From Gaiellaceae bacterium (lineage in GTDB: Bacteria > Actinomycetota > Thermoleophilia > Gaiellales > Gaiellaceae), in contig BPGK01000001.1 of NCBI GenBank assembly GCA_026002995.1, positions 1,240,001-1,304,000 on the forward strand: a stretch of 64,000 bases of DNA, in the 5' to 3' direction. The notes below the pieces were generated by a model that worked only from the letters and a program-made list of their open reading frames with translations, ran no database searches and was not told the DNA's origin. Shown here piece by piece: positions 32,363 to 40,964 of this stretch (positions are counted from its first letter, which is position 1; each line of letters starts with the position of its first letter). The position numbers were made by a program, and so were the translations under genes.

Positions 32363-32411
32363 GCAGAGGGTCACCTCGACTCCTCCTCGCCGGATTTCGG
32401 GCGCACGCGCC

Positions 32412-32999
32412 TCATCGCCTCGTCCTCGACCCGACGACCCGCCAGGCCGCGGGAAGCGTCACGGCGGCGAGGTAGAGCTTGAGCACGTCGCCGGGCACGA
32501 ACGGGTACAAGCCGAGCTCGAGGGTTCGCTCGAGGCTCGTGTCGAGCGAGACGGCGAGCCACGGCAGGCCGATCAGGTAGACGACGACGTTCCCGGTCAG
32601 AAGCGCGCCGAGCGAGGACGAGAAGCGGCGATCCCAGCGCCGCTCCGCGAGCCGTCCCGTGAGCGCCGCGGCGACGGGGAAGGCGAGGAGGTAGCCGCCC
32701 GTCGGTCCGGTGAGGGCGGCGAGGCCGCCGCTGCCCTCCGCGTACACCGGCGCGCCGAGCGCGCCGGCGAGGACGTAGAGGAGACCGCTCGCTCCGCCTC
32801 GGGTCGTCCCGAGCGCGGCGCCGACGAGGAGGACGGAGAAGGTCTGGCCCGTGATCGGGACGGGCGTGAACGGAAGGGGGATGGCGATCTGCGCGGACGC
32901 CGCGATGAGGCCTGCGCCCGCGACCACGAGGAGCGCGTCCACGAGCCGGCCTGCGTGCGGGAGCGCGGCGCTCCGGAGCGTCGTCGCCTCGGCGCTCAT
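32412..32999 (-). CDS. bioY: BioY family transporter, distal duplicate copy
   Basis: Substrate-binding membrane subunit (S component) of a biotin ECF transporter, 195 residues with about six membrane segments. Diagnostic BioY sequence includes AIPLPFTPVPITGQTFSVLLVGAALG and GPTGGYLLAFPVAAALTG. It is identical to the proximal copy. Upstream it has only a 26-codon remnant of the SUMT 3' end rather than a full gene. No bioM/bioN ATPase or permease is nearby. Confidence 0.9.
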   Translation of the reverse strand: MSAEATTLRSAALPHAGRLVDALLVVAGAGLIAASAQIAIPLPFTPVPITGQTFSVLLVGAALGTTRGGASGLLYVLAGALGAPVYAEGSGGLAALTGPTGGYLLAFPVAAALTGRLAERRWDRRFSSSLGALLTGNVVVYLIGLPWLAVSLDTSLERTLELGLYPFVPGDVLKLYLAAVTLPAAWRVVGSRTRR

Positions 33000-33075
33000 A
33001 CCGCGGCCCTCACTGCGTCGACGGTCTGCGGGAGCGCGCCGGCGAGCCTCTCCGCGAGCGCGACCACCTCGCCGA
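33000..33075 (-). pseudogene. Remnant of the SUMT gene 3' end in the duplication
   Basis: Reads GEVVALAERLAGALPQTVDAVRAAV in frame, identical to the C-terminus of the methyltransferase at 33684-34415, and stops at the distal bioY start. It was copied with bioY and cannot make an enzyme. Confidence 0.8.
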
Positions 33076-33099
33076 TGCCGGACCTCGGGCGCACGCGCC

Positions 33100-33687
33100 T
33101 CATCGCCTCGTCCTCGACCCGACGACCCGCCAGGCCGCGGGAAGCGTCACGGCGGCGAGGTAGAGCTTGAGCACGTCGCCGGGCACGAACGGGTACAAGC
33201 CGAGCTCGAGGGTTCGCTCGAGGCTCGTGTCGAGCGAGACGGCGAGCCACGGCAGGCCGATCAGGTAGACGACGACGTTCCCGGTCAGAAGCGCGCCGAG
33301 CGAGGACGAGAAGCGGCGATCCCAGCGCCGCTCCGCGAGCCGTCCCGTGAGCGCCGCGGCGACGGGGAAGGCGAGGAGGTAGCCGCCCGTCGGTCCGGTG
33401 AGGGCGGCGAGGCCGCCGCTGCCCTCCGCGTACACCGGCGCGCCGAGCGCGCCGGCGAGGACGTAGAGGAGACCGCTCGCTCCGCCTCGGGTCGTCCCGA
33501 GCGCGGCGCCGACGAGGAGGACGGAGAAGGTCTGGCCCGTGATCGGGACGGGCGTGAACGGAAGGGGGATGGCGATCTGCGCGGACGCCGCGATGAGGCC
33601 TGCGCCCGCGACCACGAGGAGCGCGTCCACGAGCCGGCCTGCGTGCGGGAGCGCGGCGCTCCGGAGCGTCGTCGCCTCGGCGCTCAT
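33100..33687 (-). CDS. bioY: BioY family transporter, proximal copy
   Basis: Identical to the distal copy: a 195-residue S component for biotin uptake. Its ATG overlaps the SUMT stop (ATGA), so it is the original last gene of the sulfate/siroheme operon. The presence of a vitamin transporter there may reflect use of ECF-type uptake for biotin without a biosynthetic set, but no biotin synthesis gene lies in the window to test this. Confidence 0.92.
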   Translation of the reverse strand: MSAEATTLRSAALPHAGRLVDALLVVAGAGLIAASAQIAIPLPFTPVPITGQTFSVLLVGAALGTTRGGASGLLYVLAGALGAPVYAEGSGGLAALTGPTGGYLLAFPVAAALTGRLAERRWDRRFSSSLGALLTGNVVVYLIGLPWLAVSLDTSLERTLELGLYPFVPGDVLKLYLAAVTLPAAWRVVGSRTRR

Positions 33688-34415
33688 ACCGCGGCCCTCA
33701 CTGCGTCGACGGTCTGCGGGAGCGCGCCGGCGAGCCTCTCCGCGAGCGCGACCACCTCGCCGATCACGACGAGTGCGGGCTGCTCGAGGCTCTCGGCGGC
33801 AGCCGCGATCTCGGCGAGGGGCGCCCGCACGACGGTCTGCGAGGCGGTCGTTCCGCGCGAGACGACCGCCGCGGGCGTCGCGGGTGGCTTGCCGTGGCGC
33901 AGCAGGCCGTCGACGAGGGCGCCGAGCGTCCCGAGGCCCATGAAGACGACGAGCGTGCCCGGCGTCCGCGCGAGCTCCGCCGGCGCGAGCGCGTCGGGAT
34001 CGTGGCCGGAGACGACCGTCACCTGCGAGGAGAGGCCGCGGTGCGTCACCGGGATGCCGGCTGCCGCCGGCACCGCGGCGAGCGACGAGACTCCGGGGAC
34101 GACCTGGAAGGGCACGCCCGCGGCGGCGAGCGCGAGCGCCTCCTCGCCTCCCCGTCCGAACACGAACGGGTCGCCGCCCTTCAGCCTGACGACGTCGAGG
34201 CCGCGGCGCCCGAGGCGGACGAGGAGCTCGGAGATCTCCGCCTGAGAGAGCGTCTCGCGGCAGACCCGCATCGCGCCCTCCGGCGCCTCGGCGACGAGCT
34301 CTTCCGCGACGAGGCGGTCGTACACGAGCGCGTCGCAGCGCCGCACGAGCTCGAGGCCGCGCACCGTGATGAGGCCGGGATCGCCGGGCCCGGCGCCGAC
34401 GAGCGAGACCGTCAT
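33684..34415 (-). CDS. cobA: Uroporphyrinogen-III C-methyltransferase (SUMT)
   Basis: Adds two methyl groups to uroporphyrinogen III to give precorrin-2, the first step toward siroheme. The 243-residue protein has SLVGAGPGDPGLITVRGLELV at the N-terminus, VYDRLV, the SAM-site VVRLKGGDPFVFGRGGEEALAL, and the VPGVSS block. Together with the upstream precorrin-2 dehydrogenase it would make the siroheme needed by the sulfite reductase at the head of the operon. The ATG overlaps the upstream stop. Confidence 0.95.
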   Translation of the reverse strand: MTVSLVGAGPGDPGLITVRGLELVRRCDALVYDRLVAEELVAEAPEGAMRVCRETLSQAEISELLVRLGRRGLDVVRLKGGDPFVFGRGGEEALALAAAGVPFQVVPGVSSLAAVPAAAGIPVTHRGLSSQVTVVSGHDPDALAPAELARTPGTLVVFMGLGTLGALVDGLLRHGKPPATPAAVVSRGTTASQTVVRAPLAEIAAAAESLEQPALVVIGEVVALAERLAGALPQTVDAVRAAV

Positions 34416-34978
34416 CCGAGCTCCTCCGCGACGAGGCTCGCGAAGAACCGGCGTCGCGACTCGTACGTCTTCAGGTTCGTGCGCGCCCACGGCCGCAGGG
34501 CGCGGAGCCGCTCCGCGAGGTCTGCGACCTCCGGGCGCAGGAGGCGCTCGGCCGCTTCGTCGCGGAGGCGCTGCGCGAGCGCGGGAGACGCCCCCGAGGT
34601 GGAGACGGCGATCGCGAGCGGGCCACGCCGAGCGACGGCGGGGAGGATGAAGGTGCAGCGCTCGGGGTCGTCGGCGACGTTGCAGAAGAGCGAGCGTGCG
34701 CGCGCGTCGCGCGACACGCGCGCGTTCACCCCTGCCCGCGAGGTGGCTGCGATGACGAGGAACCGGTTGTCCAGGTCGGTCGGGCGGTACGGCCGTTCGA
34801 GGATCTCCACGTCGAGCGCGCGCAGCTCCTCGCACACCTCGGGGGCCACGACGGTGACGTGCGCGCCGCACTCGAGCAGCCCACGCACTTTCTCGAGCGC
34901 AACGGAGCCGCCGCCGACGACGAGGCAGCTCCGCCGCTCGAGGTCGAGGCAGGCCATGTAGTAGCGCTTCTCAGCCAT
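34412..34978 (-). CDS. Precorrin-2 dehydrogenase / sirohydrochlorin ferrochelatase (Met8/CysG-N type)
   Basis: A 188-residue protein for the last steps of siroheme synthesis. MACLDLERRSCLVVGGGSVALEKVRGLLECGAHVTVVAP is the NAD-binding start, and VIAATSRAGVN and FCNVADDPERCTFILPAVARRGPLAIAVSTSGASPALA are characteristic of CysG-N/Met8. Its start overlaps the ferredoxin gene end by 8 nt, and its stop overlaps the SUMT ATG. In E. coli these two activities and SUMT are one protein; here they are separate. Confidence 0.93.
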   Translation of the reverse strand: MAEKRYYMACLDLERRSCLVVGGGSVALEKVRGLLECGAHVTVVAPEVCEELRALDVEILERPYRPTDLDNRFLVIAATSRAGVNARVSRDARARSLFCNVADDPERCTFILPAVARRGPLAIAVSTSGASPALAQRLRDEAAERLLRPEVADLAERLRALRPWARTNLKTYESRRRFFASLVAEELG

Positions 34979-35255
34979 GGCCGTTCAGCTCGGCCAGGCG
35001 CTCGGCGACCGCCTCCGCTCCGCCCTCGCGCCACGCGGCGTTGACGGCGACGAACGGAAGCCAGCGCTCGGGCAAGGCGTCTTCGGGGTAGATCGCCTCG
35101 ACTGGGCACTCCGGCTCGCAGGCCGAGCAGTCGATGCACTCGACCGGGTCGATGACGAGCATGCGCTCGGTCTCGTAGATGCAGTCGACCGGGCAGACCT
35201 CGATGCACGTCTTGTCCTTGACGTCGATGCAGGGCTCCGCGATCACGTACGCCAC
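34971..35255 (-). CDS. Seven-iron ferredoxin (3Fe-4S / 4Fe-4S)
   Basis: A 94-residue low-potential ferredoxin. Cys9-x7-Cys17-x3-Cys21-Pro can hold a 3Fe-4S cluster with help from Cys50, and Cys40-x2-Cys43-x2-Cys46-x3-Cys50-Pro the 4Fe-4S cluster; Cys25 is an extra. The pattern EPCIDVKDKTCIEVCPVDCI is typical of actinobacterial FdxA-type proteins. In this operon it is the natural electron donor for the ferredoxin-type sulfite reductase. Confidence 0.93.
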   Translation of the reverse strand: MAYVIAEPCIDVKDKTCIEVCPVDCIYETERMLVIDPVECIDCSACEPECPVEAIYPEDALPERWLPFVAVNAAWREGGAEAVAERLAELNGHG

Positions 35256-35268
35256 GCTCTCTCCTTCC

Positions 35269-35727
35269 TCACGTTCCCACCGTCGTCAGCCGCGCCCCCT
35301 GCCGGTCGAGCCGGACGCTCAGCTCCCGTCCACCCGCGGCGAGCGAGAGCTGGTAGGCGCCTGGCCCGAGCGCCTGGATCGCGATACGCTCGATGCCCCC
35401 GTCGGCGAGCGCGGCGAGGGCGGCGGTCACCTCGTCCGCCGAGCGCGTCAGCTCCTGCCCCCGCGGCAGCCGTCGGTACAGGCGCAGCGCGGCCTGCTCG
35501 CCACCCGGGCCGTAGAGGGCGCGCAGGCGGCCGGTCTGGAGGCCGAGCTCGAGCAGCTCCTCGAGCGCCTCCGCGTCCTCGTCCGTCACCTCGCCGTCTG
35601 CGAGGGCGGCGACGAGCGCGGCGAGCCGTCCGCGCCGGTCCTCGTCGCGCACGAGCGCGAGGACGGCCTGCGCTTCGCCCAGGGCGACCTCCGCCGCCTC
35701 GCCCGTCACCGGCACCGCGCTAGCCAT
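35269..35727 (-). CDS. Uncharacterised 152-residue protein in the sulfate-assimilation operon
   Basis: Not recognised. The ATG at 35727 overlaps the end of cysH by 8 nt, and the ferredoxin gene starts 14 nt downstream, so it is a genuine operon member. The N-terminal two thirds is strongly acidic and helical (LADGEVTDEDAEALEELLELG), with QTGRLRALYGPGGEQAALRLYRRLPRG in the middle. The C-terminus (QLSLAAGGRELSVRLDRQGARLTTVG) looks like a small beta-hairpin domain. No cysteines, signal peptide or membrane segment. A small regulator or adaptor is possible, but nothing proves it. Confidence 0.7.
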   Translation of the reverse strand: MASAVPVTGEAAEVALGEAQAVLALVRDEDRRGRLAALVAALADGEVTDEDAEALEELLELGLQTGRLRALYGPGGEQAALRLYRRLPRGQELTRSADEVTAALAALADGGIERIAIQALGPGAYQLSLAAGGRELSVRLDRQGARLTTVGT

Positions 35728-36505
35728 GCGTGTCCTCGCCGAGGATCGCGTGGAGCTCGTGCTCGAAGCCACCCGTCTCGATCGCGCAGTGGATGCCGCA
35801 CTCCTTCGGCGCGTTCGTCTCCCACCACCAGCGGCCGGATCGGCTCGGCGCGCCGGGCGCGACAGGCCGCGTGCACGGCGCGCAGCCGATCGACGTGTAG
35901 CCCCGGTCGTAGAGGGCGTTCGTCGGCAGGTCGCGCTCGCGGACGTACGCCCACACCTCGTCCTCCGTCCACTCGGCGAGCGGGTTGAGCTTCACGATCG
36001 CGCCGTGGTCGTGGTCGATCTCGACCTTGCGGATGTTCGTGCGGGTCGCCCACTGGTCGCGCCGCAGGCCGGTGATCCAGGCGTCGAGCGTCGCCAGGTG
36101 GCGCGTCAGCGGCTGGACTTTGCGGATGTTGCAGCAGAGGAGGCGGTTCTCGACCGACTCGAGGAACAGGTTCGGGCCCTTGCGGGCGACGAGCCGCTGG
36201 AGGTGGAGCGGATCCGGGGCGAGGAGCTCGAGCTGCATCCGCGGGTAGCGCTTGCGCAGCCGCTCGATGAGGTCGAACGTCTCCTGCGGCAGCCGCCCGG
36301 TGTCCACGCTGAACACGCGGATCTCGGGGTCGATCTCGGCCGCCATGTCGAGCACGACGACGCCGTCGACCTGAAAGGCGGTCGAGATTGCGATGCGCGG
36401 CGAGAAGCGCTCGATCGCCCACTCGAGCACGACCTGCGGCTCCTCGCCCTCGAACTCGACGGAGAGCTCGCCGGCCTCCAGCTCGTCGATCAGCTCGACT
36501 GCCAC
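35720..36505 (-). CDS. cysH: Assimilatory adenylyl-sulfate (APS) reductase
   Basis: Reduces activated sulfate to sulfite with thioredoxin. The 261-residue protein has the PP-loop-like start (IAISTAFQVDGVVVLDMA), SVDTGRLPQETFDL, and the cluster motif CCNIRKVQPL plus IGCAPCTR. The CC...CxxC set marks the [4Fe-4S] APS-specific form, and ECGIHC near the C-terminus carries the catalytic Cys. GTG start shares one base with the sir TAG stop. No sulfate adenylyltransferase is in the window. Confidence 0.94.
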   Translation of the reverse strand: MAVELIDELEAGELSVEFEGEEPQVVLEWAIERFSPRIAISTAFQVDGVVVLDMAAEIDPEIRVFSVDTGRLPQETFDLIERLRKRYPRMQLELLAPDPLHLQRLVARKGPNLFLESVENRLLCCNIRKVQPLTRHLATLDAWITGLRRDQWATRTNIRKVEIDHDHGAIVKLNPLAEWTEDEVWAYVRERDLPTNALYDRGYTSIGCAPCTRPVAPGAPSRSGRWWWETNAPKECGIHCAIETGGFEHELHAILGEDTHG

Positions 36506-38160
36506 TACGCGGCCTCCCGTCGCTCGCGTCGGCGTGCGGGCTCGACGCCGGCGAGGGCGGCGAGCTCGTCGTCGGAGAGGCGCTTCGCGAACGCCGAGAA
36601 GGTCTCCCCGTCGCGTCGGGCGGCGAGCCAGCCTCCGACGAGGCCCTCCGCGACGGCGTCGAGGTCGTCCGTGGGGACGCGCCGGAAGAGCGGCTGGCCG
36701 ATTGCGGCGTCCGGCCCCAGGCCCCCGCGCACGAAGACGTCGTATGCCTGGCGACGTCGGCCCTCGTCGTCGCGCGCGGTCGTCCCCTGGAAGCCGAGGT
36801 CGCCGACCCAGTGCTGTCCGCAGGCGTGCGGGCAGCCGTCGAGGTGGAGGCGGAGGTCGGCGATCGCGTCGCCGAAGCGCTCCTCGAGTCGCTCGATCAG
36901 ACGGCCGAGGCGCGTCTTCGTCTCCGTCACCGAGAAGTTGCAGTGCGGCTCGCCCGTGCACGCGACCGAGCGTCCGCGCACCGGGTTCACGTCGAGCGGG
37001 AGACCGATCGCCTCGAGCTCGGAGACGACCTCCTCGACCCGGCCCTCGGGGACGTTCGCGACGACGAGGTTCTGGAGCCGGGTGACGCGGATGTCGCCGC
37101 CGACGCGCTCGGCGAGGTCGGCGACGGCGATGAGCTGGTCTCCCGAGACGAGACCGAGGTGGACGGGGACGCCGACGGAGACGAGCCCCGCCTGCTTCTG
37201 AGGACGGACGCCGAGGTGATCCGAGGGCGGCCCCGCCACCGGCGGCAGGGAGAAGTCGGGGAGCCGGCGACCGAGCCGCTCCTCGAGGCGGGCGCGCATC
37301 CCCTCGGGACCGATGTCGTCGATCATGAACTTGAGCCGCGCCTTCACCCTCGAGACGCGGTAGCGGAGGTCCTCGGACCAGGCGGTCGTGATCGCGGCGA
37401 GCACCTCGAGCGCCTCCTCGGCGCGGACGAACACGCCGAGCTCGCGCCCGAGGCGCGGGACCGAGGAGAGGCCCCCGCCCACGAGCACGGCGAAGCCCTC
37501 CCGGCCCTCGTGGATCGCGCCGACGAGCGCGATGCAGTTGATCTCCGGCGCGTTGCAGCGGTCGGGGCAGGCCGCGATCGTGATCTTGTGCTTGCGCGGG
37601 AGGTCGCAGAAGTCCGGGTTCCCGTAGAAGAAGTCCGCCGCCTCGCGGACGATCCCCGAGCAGTCGAAGAGCTCGTTCGGATCGAGGCCCTGGAGCGGGC
37701 AGCCGGTGATGTTGCGCACCGTGTCGCCGCACCCGCCGGCGGTCGTGATCCCGGCGGCGTCGAGGTGTGCGAAGACGTCGGGGAGGCTGCCGAGCTCGAG
37801 CCAGTGGAGTTGGATGTTCTGCCGGGTGGCGAGCTCCGCGTCGCCGCGGCCGTAGCGGTTCGACACCTCCCCGATCGCACGGAGCTTCGCGGGCGTGAGG
37901 TGGCCGCTCGGCAGCTTGATGCGGAGCATGAAGCGCCCGACCTTCGGCTTGTCGTGGTAGAGACCCCACCACTGCAAGCGGACGATGTCCTCCTCGGGGA
38001 CGGCCTCGTAGCCGGCCGCGATGAGCGCCGGCAGCTCGTCCCGGATCCCGAGCGGCGCGCGCTCCTTCTTGATGCGCTCGACCGGGTTGCGCTGGAGGAC
38101 GAGCTCCCAGTCGGGCTCCGGTCTCTGCGATGGGGTGGGTGTGTCGGTCGGTACCGGCAT
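36505..38160 (-). CDS. sir: Ferredoxin-dependent sulfite (nitrite/sulfite) reductase
   Basis: A siroheme/[4Fe-4S] hemoprotein that reduces sulfite to sulfide by six electrons. The 551-residue chain has two ferrite-like halves: LRIKLPSGHLTPAKLRAIGEVSNRYGRGDAELATRQNIQLHWL, then the cluster/siroheme Cys motifs CTGEPHC and CPHACGQHWVGDLGF. Linkage to APS reductase, siroheme genes and a ferredoxin points to sulfite rather than nitrite as substrate. ATG 38160 is preferred over an upstream frame extension because a structured leader with its own short ORF lies just ahead. Confidence 0.93.
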   Translation of the reverse strand: MPVPTDTPTPSQRPEPDWELVLQRNPVERIKKERAPLGIRDELPALIAAGYEAVPEEDIVRLQWWGLYHDKPKVGRFMLRIKLPSGHLTPAKLRAIGEVSNRYGRGDAELATRQNIQLHWLELGSLPDVFAHLDAAGITTAGGCGDTVRNITGCPLQGLDPNELFDCSGIVREAADFFYGNPDFCDLPRKHKITIAACPDRCNAPEINCIALVGAIHEGREGFAVLVGGGLSSVPRLGRELGVFVRAEEALEVLAAITTAWSEDLRYRVSRVKARLKFMIDDIGPEGMRARLEERLGRRLPDFSLPPVAGPPSDHLGVRPQKQAGLVSVGVPVHLGLVSGDQLIAVADLAERVGGDIRVTRLQNLVVANVPEGRVEEVVSELEAIGLPLDVNPVRGRSVACTGEPHCNFSVTETKTRLGRLIERLEERFGDAIADLRLHLDGCPHACGQHWVGDLGFQGTTARDDEGRRRQAYDVFVRGGLGPDAAIGQPLFRRVPTDDLDAVAEGLVGGWLAARRDGETFSAFAKRLSDDELAALAGVEPARRRERREAA

Positions 38161-38185
38161 CGTCCTCGCGGGTGGTAGCGGGAGG

Positions 38186-38278
38186 TCAGCCGGTGGGAAG
38201 CGCCGTGCGGCGCATCCCACCGGCACTCAGGCAGGTGGAGCCGGTGGAGGGAGAGTGCGACCGGGCTCCGTGGTGCAT
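38186..38278 (-). CDS. Leaderless short ORF upstream of sir (candidate leader peptide)
   Basis: A 30-codon ORF starting 8 nt after the -10 TAAGGT and ending in TGA directly after a strong hairpin arm. It contains one Cys codon (GSTCLSAGG) and three His. Its position and leaderless start copy the Trp, Phe and Leu leaders of this window. Cys-responsive leaderless uORFs are known in front of actinobacterial sulfur operons, but those carry several Cys codons; here only one is present, so the sensing role is unproved. Confidence 0.45.
   Translation of the reverse strand: MHHGARSHSPSTGSTCLSAGGMRRTALPTG
38189..38224 (-). ncRNA. Strong hairpin in the sir leader
   Basis: GCCGGTGGGA (38189-38198) pairs perfectly with TCCCACCGGC (38215-38224), with an inner GCGCC/GGCGC stem (38200-38204 / 38209-38213) and one A-A mismatch. 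It ends 29 nt before the sir ATG and overlaps the last codons of the leader ORF, so translation of the ORF would melt it. Confidence 0.55.
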
Positions 38279-38343: not shown

Positions 38344-39564
38344 CTACAGGACGACGCCCAGGCGTTCGAGGAGCGCGTCGCCGTCAGGCTCGACGACGAT
38401 CGGCTGCACGGAGTCGGCGACCGGCTGCGGGGTCTTGAGGCCGTCGCCGGTGACGAGGAGCACGACCGTGTCCTGCTCGCCGACCTCGCCGCGCCGAACC
38501 GCCTCGCGGAGCGCGCCCAGCGTCACGCCCGCCGCGGTCTCGCCGAAGACGCCCGTCGTCTCCGCGAGGAGCGCCATGTTCGCCCCGATCTCGTCCTCGG
38601 CGACGGCGTAGACGGCGCCGCCCGAGGCCTGTGCGGTCGCGACGGCGAGGTCGCCGTCGGCGGGGTTCCCGATCGCGAGGGAGCGCGCCAGCGTGCTCGG
38701 TCGCAGCGGCTTCACCGCCCGTCCCTCGGCGAACGCCGCCGCCACCGGCGCGCAACCCTCGGCCTGCCCGCCGTAGAGCCGCGGCGCCGCGTCGTCGAGG
38801 AGGCCGAGCGTGCGGAGCTCCGCGAAGCCCTGGTGCACCTTCGAGTAGAGGGCGCCGGAGGCGATCGGCGCGACGACCGCGTCCGGGGCGCGCCAGCCGA
38901 GCTGCTCGGCGATCTCGAAGGCGAGCGTCTTCGAGCCCTCCGCGTAGTACGCGCGGAGGCCGACGTTCACGAACGCCCACTCCAGCTCGAAGGAGAGCTC
39001 GACCGAGAGCCGGCTACAGTCGTCGTACGTTCCATCGACGGCGTAGATCGTCGCCCCGTACACCGCGGTGGCGGCGAGCTTCTCCGGCTCGAGGTCGGCG
39101 GGGCAGAGGATGACCGCCTCGAGCCCCTCCGCGGCCGCTCGTGCGGCGACGGCGTTCGCGAGGTTGCCGGTGGACGAGCAGGAGAGCGTCGTGGCGCCGA
39201 TCTCGAGCGCCTTCGCCGCCGCGACCGCGACGACGCGATCCTTGAACGAGTGCGTCGGGTTCGCCGTCTCGAGCTTGAGCCAGACCTCGCCGACTCCGAG
39301 CGCGGTCGCGAGCCTCGGCGCGCGGACGAGCGGGGTCAGGCCCGGCGCGAGCCGCGGCTCCGCCGGCGCGGCGACGGGCAAGAGGTCGGCGTAGCGCCAG
39401 AGCGACGGGGGCCCCGAGGCGATCGTCTCGGCGCTGACGGACTCCCGCAGGGCGTCCCAGTCGTAGACGGGATCGAGGGGTCCGAAGCAGCGGCTACAGA
39501 CGCCGATCGGCTCGAGCCCGTGCTCCTGCTCGCAGACCCGACATCGAAGGGAGATGGCTGGCAC
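38344..39564 (-). CDS. thrC: Threonine synthase
   Basis: A PLP enzyme that makes threonine from O-phosphohomoserine. The 406-residue protein opens with a zinc-ribbon-like segment (RCRVCEQEHGLEPIGVCSRCFGPLDPVYDWD) that is common in this family. PLP Lys is in ETANPTHSFKDR, SCSSTGNLANAVAARAA is the phosphate-site loop, and IASGALYSKVHQGF follows. GTG 39564 is chosen for its GGAGG 6 nt upstream; the frame extends 15 codons further but into the riboswitch. Control by a SAM riboswitch is unusual for threonine synthase. Confidence 0.92.
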   Translation of the reverse strand: MPAISLRCRVCEQEHGLEPIGVCSRCFGPLDPVYDWDALRESVSAETIASGPPSLWRYADLLPVAAPAEPRLAPGLTPLVRAPRLATALGVGEVWLKLETANPTHSFKDRVVAVAAAKALEIGATTLSCSSTGNLANAVAARAAAEGLEAVILCPADLEPEKLAATAVYGATIYAVDGTYDDCSRLSVELSFELEWAFVNVGLRAYYAEGSKTLAFEIAEQLGWRAPDAVVAPIASGALYSKVHQGFAELRTLGLLDDAAPRLYGGQAEGCAPVAAAFAEGRAVKPLRPSTLARSLAIGNPADGDLAVATAQASGGAVYAVAEDEIGANMALLAETTGVFGETAAGVTLGALREAVRRGEVGEQDTVVLLVTGDGLKTPQPVADSVQPIVVEPDGDALLERLGVVL

Positions 39565-39587
39565 GACGTTCCTCCTTCCTCGCTCGA

Positions 39588-39671
39588 CACATCCGTCCGG
39601 GCTTGGCACCGTGCTCGTCGAGCCGGTTGCCGAGGCTTCACAGGGCCGGTCCCTCAGCCTCTCTCGATGCG
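39588..39671 (-). ncRNA. SAM riboswitch (S-box type) upstream of thrC
   Basis: In transcript order: P1 CGCATC (39671-39666), GAGAGGCTGAGGGACCGGCCC, TGAAGCCTCGGCAACC, then CGGTGCCAAGCCCGGA and the P1 partner GATGTG (39593-39588). GAGGGACCGGCCC, CGGCAACC and GGTGCCAA are the conserved SAM-I/IV core segments. Outside P1, CCTCGCTC (39679-39672) is complementary to GAGCGAGG (39585-39578), so the stem can extend to the edge of the Shine-Dalgarno (39579-39571). Ligand binding would then hide the ribosome site. Subclass SAM-I versus SAM-IV is not decided here. Confidence 0.85.
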
Positions 39672-39701
39672 GAGCGAGGACGCGCCTCGCTGCCGGTCGT
39701 C

Positions 39702-39709
39702 ACTATACA
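39702..39709. promoter_or_regulatory. Overlapping divergent -10 boxes for thrC (TATAGT) and proA (TATACA)
   Basis: CACTATACAC holds TATAGT on the minus strand (39707-39702), about 30 nt before the riboswitch P1, and TATACA on the plus strand (39704-39709), ending 7 nt before the proA GTG. The two promoters share the same few bases and may compete. Confidence 0.55.
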
Positions 39710-39716
39710 CAGGGAA

Positions 39717-40964
39717 GTGGACGCGCTGCAGCGACAGATCGAGCACGAGGCGCTCGAGGCCGGCCGGGCGGCGCCCGCGCTCCGCGACGACCTCGTCGCC
39801 GAGGCGCTGCGGAGGGCGGCGGCGCTCGTGCGGGAGCGGCGCTCGGCGATCCTCGCGGCGAACGCCGAGGACTGCGCGCGGGCCGAGGGGACGCTCGACG
39901 CCGGCACGCTCGACCGCCTGCGGCTGGACGACGACCGGGTCGAGGCGCTCGCTCGGCAGGTCGCCGCCGTGGCCGAGCTCGAGCCGCTCGAGCGCGAGGT
40001 GGCGAGCTGGACGCTCGCGAACGGGCTGCGGGTCAGCGAGCGGCGGATCCCGATCGGCGTCGTCGGCGCGAACTTCGAGGCCCGGCCGAACGTTGCCCTC
40101 GACGTCGCAGGCCAGCTCCTCAAGAGCCTCAACACGGCGGTGCTCCGGACGGGTGGGGCGGCGCTCGGCACGGTGACCGTGCTCGTCGACGACGTCCTGC
40201 GCCCGGCGCTCGCCGACGCCGGTCTGCCTCCGGGCGCGGTCGGTCTCGTGCGCTCGCCGAAGCGTGAGGGGGCGCGGATCCTCGTCTCGCTCCCGCGGCG
40301 GATCCCCCTCGTCATCCTGCGCGGGAGCGGCGAGACGACCGCCGCGCTCGCGCGGCTCGCCGCCGAGAGCGGCGTGCGCGCGCTCGCGCACGCGGAAGGG
40401 GGCGGTGTCCTCTACGTGCACGCCTCGGCCGACCCGGTCAAGGCGCGCGCGCTCGTGGACGCCTCACTCGACCGGCTCGGTGTCTGCAACCGGCTGAACC
40501 TGCTCCTGGTCGACCGGGCTGCGGAGGAGCTCGTTCCCGAGCTCCTCGCGGTGCTCTCGGAGCGGGGCATCGAGGCGCGCGGGACGGTCGCGGGCACGCT
40601 CCCGCTCGACCGCCCGCTCGGCTACGAGTGGGCGAACGACCCGGAGCGCGTCGCGACCGTGACCGTCGCCTCGGTGGAGGGGGTCGACGAGGCTGTGCGC
40701 ATCGCGAACGAGGAGACGTCGGGTCTCGCGGCGGGGATCGTCGCCGAAGACGAGGCGAGCGCGCAGCGGTTCCTCGACGGCTACCGGGGGACGGCCGCCT
40801 TCTGGCATGCGTCGACGCGGTTCGCCGACGGGTACGAGCTCACCGGAGCGCCCGAGACCGGGATCAACGTCGACTGGACACCTGGGCCGCGCGGGCCTGT
40901 CACCTACCGCGATCTCTTCCTCCGCCAGTACCGCGTCATCGGGGACGCGACCCAGCGCCGGTGA
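39717..40964 (+). CDS. proA: Glutamate-5-semialdehyde dehydrogenase (gamma-glutamyl phosphate reductase)
   Basis: Second step of proline synthesis. The 415-residue protein has GVVGANFEARPNVALDVAGQLLKSLNTAVLRTGGAAL, the NADPH-binding part, RGSGETTAALARLA, and the catalytic Cys in LGVCNRLNLLLVD. WHASTRFADGYELTGAPETGI is the C-terminal signature. GTG 39717 lies 7 nt after TATACA and has no spaced Shine-Dalgarno, so the message is probably leaderless; the frame upstream runs into the divergent riboswitch and is not coding. It precedes proB, the reverse of the common proBA order. Confidence 0.95.
   Translation: MDALQRQIEHEALEAGRAAPALRDDLVAEALRRAAALVRERRSAILAANAEDCARAEGTLDAGTLDRLRLDDDRVEALARQVAAVAELEPLEREVASWTLANGLRVSERRIPIGVVGANFEARPNVALDVAGQLLKSLNTAVLRTGGAALGTVTVLVDDVLRPALADAGLPPGAVGLVRSPKREGARILVSLPRRIPLVILRGSGETTAALARLAAESGVRALAHAEGGGVLYVHASADPVKARALVDASLDRLGVCNRLNLLLVDRAAEELVPELLAVLSERGIEARGTVAGTLPLDRPLGYEWANDPERVATVTVASVEGVDEAVRIANEETSGLAAGIVAEDEASAQRFLDGYRGTAAFWHASTRFADGYELTGAPETGINVDWTPGPRGPVTYRDLFLRQYRVIGDATQRR

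What the first reader, a model, noticed from the sequence alone, without database searches (positions are those of the whole stretch)
39571..39707. SAM riboswitch controlling threonine synthase, with a P1 extension reaching the ribosome site
All conserved core segments of the SAM-I/IV family are present upstream of thrC. Outside P1, an 8-bp helix (39672-39679 with 39578-39585) abuts the AAGGAGG Shine-Dalgarno, a direct translation-control design. SAM riboswitches normally control Met/Cys/SAM genes. Threonine synthase competes with methionine synthesis for phosphohomoserine, so repressing it at high SAM is unexpected; it may instead be an ON switch, or the enzyme may be tied to Met flux.
Basis: partly seen in the sequence, partly recalled or inferred. 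Interest (0 to 1): 0.75.

Follow-up and report, generated by a model that had tools for sequence, protein, structure and literature searches.

The report
SAM riboswitch on a homocysteine-synthase gene
The RNA switch is real, but the gene it controls is very probably not an ordinary threonine synthase: it belongs to a look-alike family (MetM type) that makes the methionine precursor homocysteine, so turning it off when the methionine product SAM is plentiful is ordinary feedback control.

Summary
Observation confirmed. A SAM-I aptamer (RF00162, 67.4 bits) lies on the minus strand at 39673..39586. An 8-bp extension of P1 ends exactly at the AAGGAGG Shine-Dalgarno (SD) of the next gene.

The paradox dissolves. 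That gene is a threonine-synthase paralogue; the genome has a separate canonical thrC beside hom. The paralogue's clade splits cleanly from canonical ThrC (SH-aLRT 100), with its own active-site motifs. 80 of 112 members have a SAM riboswitch directly upstream, against 0 of 24 canonical ThrCs. Members sit beside sulfite reductase and APS/PAPS reductase (window), homocysteine methyltransferase, or a CysO-like sulfur carrier. This matches MetM, the O-phosphohomoserine-dependent homocysteine synthase of Streptomyces, itself reported to have a SAM riboswitch (Hasebe 2024, read only through a citing paper). The window genome lacks MetX and MetA.

Regulation is most likely OFF. In Solirubrobacterales the same gene carries antisequestor/terminator or SD-sequestor platforms with OFF logic. 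In the window lineage the likely mechanism is direct: SAM-bound P1 plus extension abuts the SD, competing with a conserved 5' hairpin that uses the same strand. Folding energies alone do not settle the sign.

Side finding: 37 of 78 measurable linked aptamers, including this one, lack P4. Verdict: real and well explained; new member of a known kind.

The parts
39586..39673 (-). SAM-I aptamer (P1, P2 with K-turn, P3, loop pseudoknot); P4 absent (11-nt linker AAGCCCGGACG between GGUGCC and GAUG)
   Evidence: cmscan RF00162 67.4 bits; own covariance model R1 87.3 bits; P4 measurement
39672..39679 (-). 5' strand of the P1 extension (CCUCGCUC)
   Evidence: sequence check, duplex energy against shuffles
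39578..39585 (-). 3' strand of the P1 extension (GAGCGAGG), ends directly at the SD
39673..39691 (-). Competing 5' (anti-P1) hairpin AGCGAGG-CGCGU-CCUCGCU, mutually exclusive with the P1 extension
   Evidence: RNAfold; 5' region of 29 related leaders folds better than dinucleotide shuffles, mean z -1.67
39571..39577 (-). Shine-Dalgarno AAGGAGG, 6 nt before the GUG start
   Evidence: sequence
39702..39707 (-). Putative -10 element TATAGT; would start the transcript just before the 5' hairpin (inferred)
   Evidence: sequence; the consensus scan found no full sigma-70 site
38344..39564 (-). ThrC-family paralogue, MetM type (406 aa), probable O-phosphohomoserine-dependent homocysteine synthase
36505..38226 (-). 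Sulfite/nitrite reductase family protein (siroheme, ferredoxin type), downstream on the same strand
35720..36430 (-). CysH-type APS/PAPS reductase
33684..35255 (-). Ferredoxin, siroheme synthase N-domain and uroporphyrinogen-III methyltransferase (sulfite-reductase support genes)

Best explanation
A SAM-I riboswitch of the OFF type controls translation of a MetM-type enzyme: a threonine-synthase paralogue that converts O-phosphohomoserine plus reduced sulfur to homocysteine. When SAM is low, the 5' strand of the P1 extension is taken up by an upstream hairpin, the 3' strand and SD are free, and homocysteine synthase is made. When SAM is high, it locks P1; the extension zips up to the first base of the SD, and 30S binding is blocked. 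Shown here: aptamer, extension, competing hairpin, clade membership, genomic context, conservation of the linkage. Inferred: SAM binding, sign of control, steric block, and the enzyme's reaction.
For: Aptamer. Gene is not the only ThrC: canonical thrC lies beside hom. Paralogue clade separated from 24 canonical ThrCs at SH-aLRT 100, 80/112 with a riboswitch against 0/24. Motifs differ: NPTxSFKDRVV / STGNL / EGSKT against NPTGSFKDRGM / STGNT / EGQKT. Linkage: 37 of 43 order genomes with the gene and 51 of 80 named loci from a scan that used only the protein. Sulfur context: sulfite reductase and CysH downstream; homocysteine S-methyltransferase overlapping the gene in L088; CysO-like carrier directly downstream in other clades. 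No MetX or MetA in the genome. Where MetX exists in the order, a riboswitch sits before metY-metX. OFF platforms in Solirubrobacterales. P1 extension reaches within 0-2 nt of the SD in about half of 29 leaders. Literature: MetM with SAM riboswitch (via PMC12172450); SAM-I direct translation attenuation frequent in Actinobacteria (PMC2258182).
Against: Predicted SD accessibility does not separate the states: mean 0.58 with P1 formed against 0.49 without. No assay exists for this protein, and a Microcystis relative of MetM acts as threonine synthase and deaminase in vitro (PMC12172450). The window gene lacks the adjacent carrier gene found in other clades; the nearest carrier is in a CysM-JAB cluster elsewhere. 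ThrC* and MetX are not complementary across the order: 17 of 43 good genomes have neither. The original MetM paper could not be read.
Confidence: 0.82

Rival explanations
1. The gene is a genuine second threonine synthase and SAM represses it.
For: NCBIfam names it threonine synthase (TIGR00260 227 bits against a cut-off of 167); a Microcystis relative of MetM has threonine synthase activity (PMC12172450).
Against: A canonical thrC is already present; distinct clade and motifs; sulfur-assimilation, homocysteine methyltransferase or sulfur-carrier neighbours; riboswitch linkage kept across clades with different platforms.
Confidence: 0.1
2. The riboswitch is an ON switch: SAM raises threonine synthase to divert phosphohomoserine to threonine.
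For: In the window the unbound fold leaves the SD no more accessible than the P1-formed fold (0.45 against 0.74).
Against: OFF logic of the same gene's platforms in Solirubrobacterales; SD placed at or beside P1 in related Actinobacteria, a layout described as direct translation attenuation (PMC2258182); sulfur context.
Confidence: 0.06
3. The riboswitch acts mainly at transcription (Rho-dependent or intrinsic termination) and the SD contact is incidental.
For: Related Solirubrobacterales leaders have intrinsic terminators; blocked translation often causes Rho termination (general knowledge).
Against: In this lineage only 17-29 nt separate P1 from the start codon, leaving no room for a terminator; the scan found none on this strand.
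Confidence: 0.1

Closest known systems
MetM homocysteine synthase of Streptomyces albulus (Hasebe et al. 2024, AEM 90:e01247-24; cited in PMC12172450)
   Same: ThrC-like PLP enzyme using O-phosphohomoserine; SAM riboswitch upstream. The Nonomuraea homologue fetched here has the riboswitch directly upstream and a sulfur-carrier gene directly downstream.
   Different: Window copy is in a Thermoleophilia-type genome, about 48% identical to the Nonomuraea one, with sulfite reductase and CysH downstream instead of the carrier gene.
SAM-I (S-box) riboswitches with direct translation attenuation (Barrick and Breaker 2007, PMC2258182)
   Same: SD at the 3' side of P1, no separate expression platform; [quoted passage not shown]
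   Different: Here the SD lies just outside an extended P1, and a 5' hairpin competes for the extension strand.
Xanthomonas met operon SAM-I riboswitch (PMC7270179)
   Same: SAM-I aptamer, translational OFF control of a methionine gene.
   Different: Uses a downstream SD/AUG-sequestering hairpin and senses initiator tRNA; the window leader has no such hairpin.
SAM-IV riboswitch (PMC6890682)
   Same: Same core, and no P4.
   Different: SAM-IV has P5 and a second pseudoknot and no SAM-I K-turn; none of these fits here, and RF00162 is the best clan model.
CysM/CysO cysteine synthesis (M. tuberculosis, PDB 3dwg)
   Same: PALP-fold enzyme paired with a sulfur carrier; MetM-linked carriers match CysO (5.1e-25).
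   Different: Different substrate; the genome's own CysO-CysM-JAB-like cluster is unlinked to the window gene.

Membership tests
SAM-I riboswitch (RF00162) | Covariance-model score above the curated cut-off | tested here: met
   67.4 bits against 44.4
SAM-I riboswitch (RF00162) | P4 helix present | tested here: not met
   11-nt linker only; same in 37 of 78 measurable linked aptamers. Rfam's model still scores such members above its cut-off, so this is read as a subtype.
SAM-I riboswitch (RF00162) | Binds SAM | not testable with these tools
   needs in-line probing or ITC
SAM-IV riboswitch | P5 with second pseudoknot, no K-turn | tested here: not met
   RF00162 best in clan; the aptamer ends at P1 directly before the SD, leaving no 3' element. 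Feature list from PMC6890682
Direct translation attenuation (SAM-I) | SD within or directly beside the 3' strand of P1 | tested here: met
   0 nt between extension and AAGGAGG
Direct translation attenuation (SAM-I) | Ligand lowers translation | not testable with these tools
   folding energies inconclusive; OFF logic only by comparison
MetM homocysteine synthase | ThrC-like sequence distinct from canonical ThrC | tested here: met
MetM homocysteine synthase | Direct sequence match to S. albulus MetM | not tested
   that sequence is not held; a Nonomuraea homologue (48%) was used as a stand-in
MetM homocysteine synthase | SAM riboswitch directly upstream | tested here: met
MetM homocysteine synthase | Adjacent sulfur-carrier gene (metO; from memory of the 2024 abstract) | tested here: not met
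   absent beside the window gene; two carriers elsewhere in the genome
MetM homocysteine synthase | Makes homocysteine from O-phosphohomoserine | not testable with these tools
   needs an enzyme assay
Canonical threonine synthase (ThrC) | NPTGSFKDRGM / STGNT / EGQKT motifs | tested here: not met
   window gene has NPTHSFKDRVV / STGNL / EGSKT

The most novel reading that the evidence does not exclude
MetM genes of Actinomycetota-type lineages are controlled by a P4-less SAM-I subtype with a constant 11-nt linker; in the window's lineage it is coupled to a minimal platform in which a 5' anti-P1 hairpin and a P1 extension abutting the SD exchange one strand. The window enzyme may take sulfide straight from the adjacent sulfite-reductase genes rather than from a dedicated carrier.
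Probability: 0.4. Interest if true: 0.5.

Novelty: new member of a known kind. Interest (0 to 1): 0.42.

Why it matters
Many genomes without MetX or MetA look methionine-auxotrophic, and their MetM-type gene is annotated as threonine synthase. A SAM riboswitch in front of a threonine synthase is a cheap flag for the O-phosphohomoserine route to methionine. Here it links that route to Thermoleophilia, Solirubrobacterales, Acidimicrobiia and some Chloroflexota. The leader is also a very compact SAM-I switch (aptamer without P4, no separate expression platform), useful for asking how little RNA a working SAM-I switch needs.

Tried and rejected
Phyletic complementarity of the paralogue and MetX: tested and not found (Fisher p = 1; 5 both, 14 paralogue only, 7 MetX only, 17 neither in 43 good genomes), so it is not used as evidence. 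Sign of regulation from RNA energies: inconclusive; a first run used a constraint that wrongly unpaired bases and was replaced. A first tree with a faulty label rule was redone. MAFFT misplaced the P1 3' strand of P4-less aptamers, so the covariance model was built from P4-containing ones only. Weak 28-bit second SAM hit in the genome: not pursued, probably chance. Rfam on 26 homologue loci without an R1 hit next to the gene gave no adjacent riboswitch (L155's lies 2.5 kb away). The original MetM paper is not held. Structure prediction was not run, because no coordinates would be available to inspect the pocket.

Full report
WHAT IS THERE. On the minus strand, RF00162 (SAM-I) matches 39673..39586 at 67.4 bits over the whole model. 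Other clan members scored lower and were removed. It is the only above-cut-off copy in the 2,622,036-bp genome. Reading 5' to 3', the leader has a TATAGT -10-like element (39707..39702), a small hairpin AGCGAGG-CGCGU-CCUCGCU (39691..39673), the aptamer, an 8-bp P1 extension CCUCGCUC/GAGCGAGG (39679..39672 with 39585..39578, after a UC bulge), then AAGGAGG (39577..39571) and GUG 39564. The hairpin and the extension use the same 5' strand, so they cannot coexist.

THE GENE. The 406-aa product is annotated threonine synthase by NCBIfam. The genome holds a second, 41%-identical ThrC at 2583893 directly after hom, followed by a third gene that I take to be thrB from its position (not tested against a family library). 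Downstream of the riboswitch gene on the same strand are a siroheme sulfite/nitrite reductase, CysH, a ferredoxin and siroheme-synthesis genes. About 120-180 nt separate the two coding regions; no terminator was found on this strand between them, but co-transcription is not shown.

CLADE. In a 143-row tree (quick search, SH-aLRT only), 24 canonical ThrCs, including this genome's own, separate from 112 paralogues plus a third type with support 100. Motifs separate too: canonical NPTGSFKDRGM, STGNT, NPxRxEGQKT; paralogue NPTxSFKDRVV, STGNL, NxRxYYAEGSKT. A riboswitch stands directly upstream of 80 of 112 paralogues and of none of the 24 canonical genes. The named set came from a scan with the protein alone, of which 51 of 80 have the riboswitch. 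Within the order it is 37 of 43 genomes.

CONTEXT ELSEWHERE. In L088 the paralogue overlaps a homocysteine S-methyltransferase. In many Solirubrobacterales, Acidimicrobiia and Chloroflexota and in Nonomuraea gerenzanensis, the next gene is a ThiS/MoaD-type carrier ending PAVAGG, closest to M. tuberculosis CysO among solved structures. Nonomuraea also has the SAM riboswitch directly upstream. Riboswitches of the order without this gene stand before homocysteine methyltransferase or metY-metX. MetX is absent from the window genome and MetA from the whole order.

WHAT IT MOST LIKELY IS. Hasebe et al. 2024 described MetM, a ThrC-like homocysteine synthase acting on O-phosphohomoserine in Streptomyces; I could read it only through PMC12172450, which also states that metM has an upstream SAM riboswitch. 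From memory of its abstract, a sulfur carrier MetO is encoded downstream of metM. The window gene fits this family, apart from having no adjacent carrier. The reported metabolic paradox then disappears: SAM shuts off synthesis of its own precursor.

HOW IT SWITCHES. The same gene uses different platforms in different clades. In Solirubrobacterales the P1 3' strand (GUGGGG, GUGAGU, GUGGCG) is complementary to the arm of a hairpin that carries the SD or precedes a U-run: a classical antisequestor/antiterminator with OFF logic. In Acidimicrobiia P1 runs straight into AGGAGG. In the window's family the P1 extension varies in sequence and reaches within 0-2 nt of the SD in about half of 29 leaders. 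The 5' region folds better than dinucleotide shuffles in 28 of 29 (mean z -1.67; the sequences are related, so this is not a probability). Compensatory changes occur, for example CGCUC/GAGCG against GGCUC/GAGCC. Energies alone do not show whether SAM opens or closes the SD, so OFF control rests on comparison and on known direct attenuation in Actinobacteria (PMC2258182).

APTAMER SUBTYPE. The window aptamer has no P4. Of 78 linked aptamers that could be measured, 37 have only an 11-12-nt linker in its place, in three clades (one further short call, L172, looks like a measuring error). Whether this subtype has been described was not established.

LIMITS. No binding, expression or enzyme data. 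S. albulus MetM itself was not compared. The paralogue and MetX are not complementary across the order, so the missing MetX is consistent with, not proof of, the MetM role.

Noticed in passing
window 32397-33076 and 33085-33764: A perfect 680-bp tandem duplication carrying the same 195-aa membrane protein gene twice (BioY-like by eye, not tested), zero differences; either a very recent duplication or an assembly artefact.
   Followed up: partly
window 39702-39717: The -10-like element TATAGT (minus) overlaps TATACA on the plus strand a few nt before the GTG of divergent proA, suggesting a shared bidirectional promoter and a leaderless proA. Divergent proA is kept beside the paralogue in several relatives (L088, L090, L091, L095, L096, L097, L105).
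   Followed up: partly
window 38188-38225 (-): Strong hairpin in the gap before the sulfite-reductase gene; the 171-nt gap folds with z -2.5, and no Rfam family fits.
   Followed up: partly
L187, L188, L189, L190, L202, L203, L205: A third ThrC-like type (EGAKT motif, 49-53% identical to the window gene) without riboswitch; in G086, G090 and G092 a CysO-like carrier lies within a few kb. Function unknown.
   Followed up: no
L217 4153-5766 (genome 1940152-1941765): CysO-like carrier, PALP enzyme and JAB-domain genes in a row: an M. tuberculosis-type CysO-CysM-Mec-like cysteine cluster in the window genome.
   Followed up: partly
L050, L051, L055: In a related family the strand 5' of P1 (CGAUCCCC) is complementary to the SD region (GGGGAUCG), so there the extension itself may bury the SD.
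   Followed up: partly
order-level genomes: 17 of 43 good-quality genomes have neither the paralogue nor MetX; how they obtain homocysteine is open.
   Followed up: no
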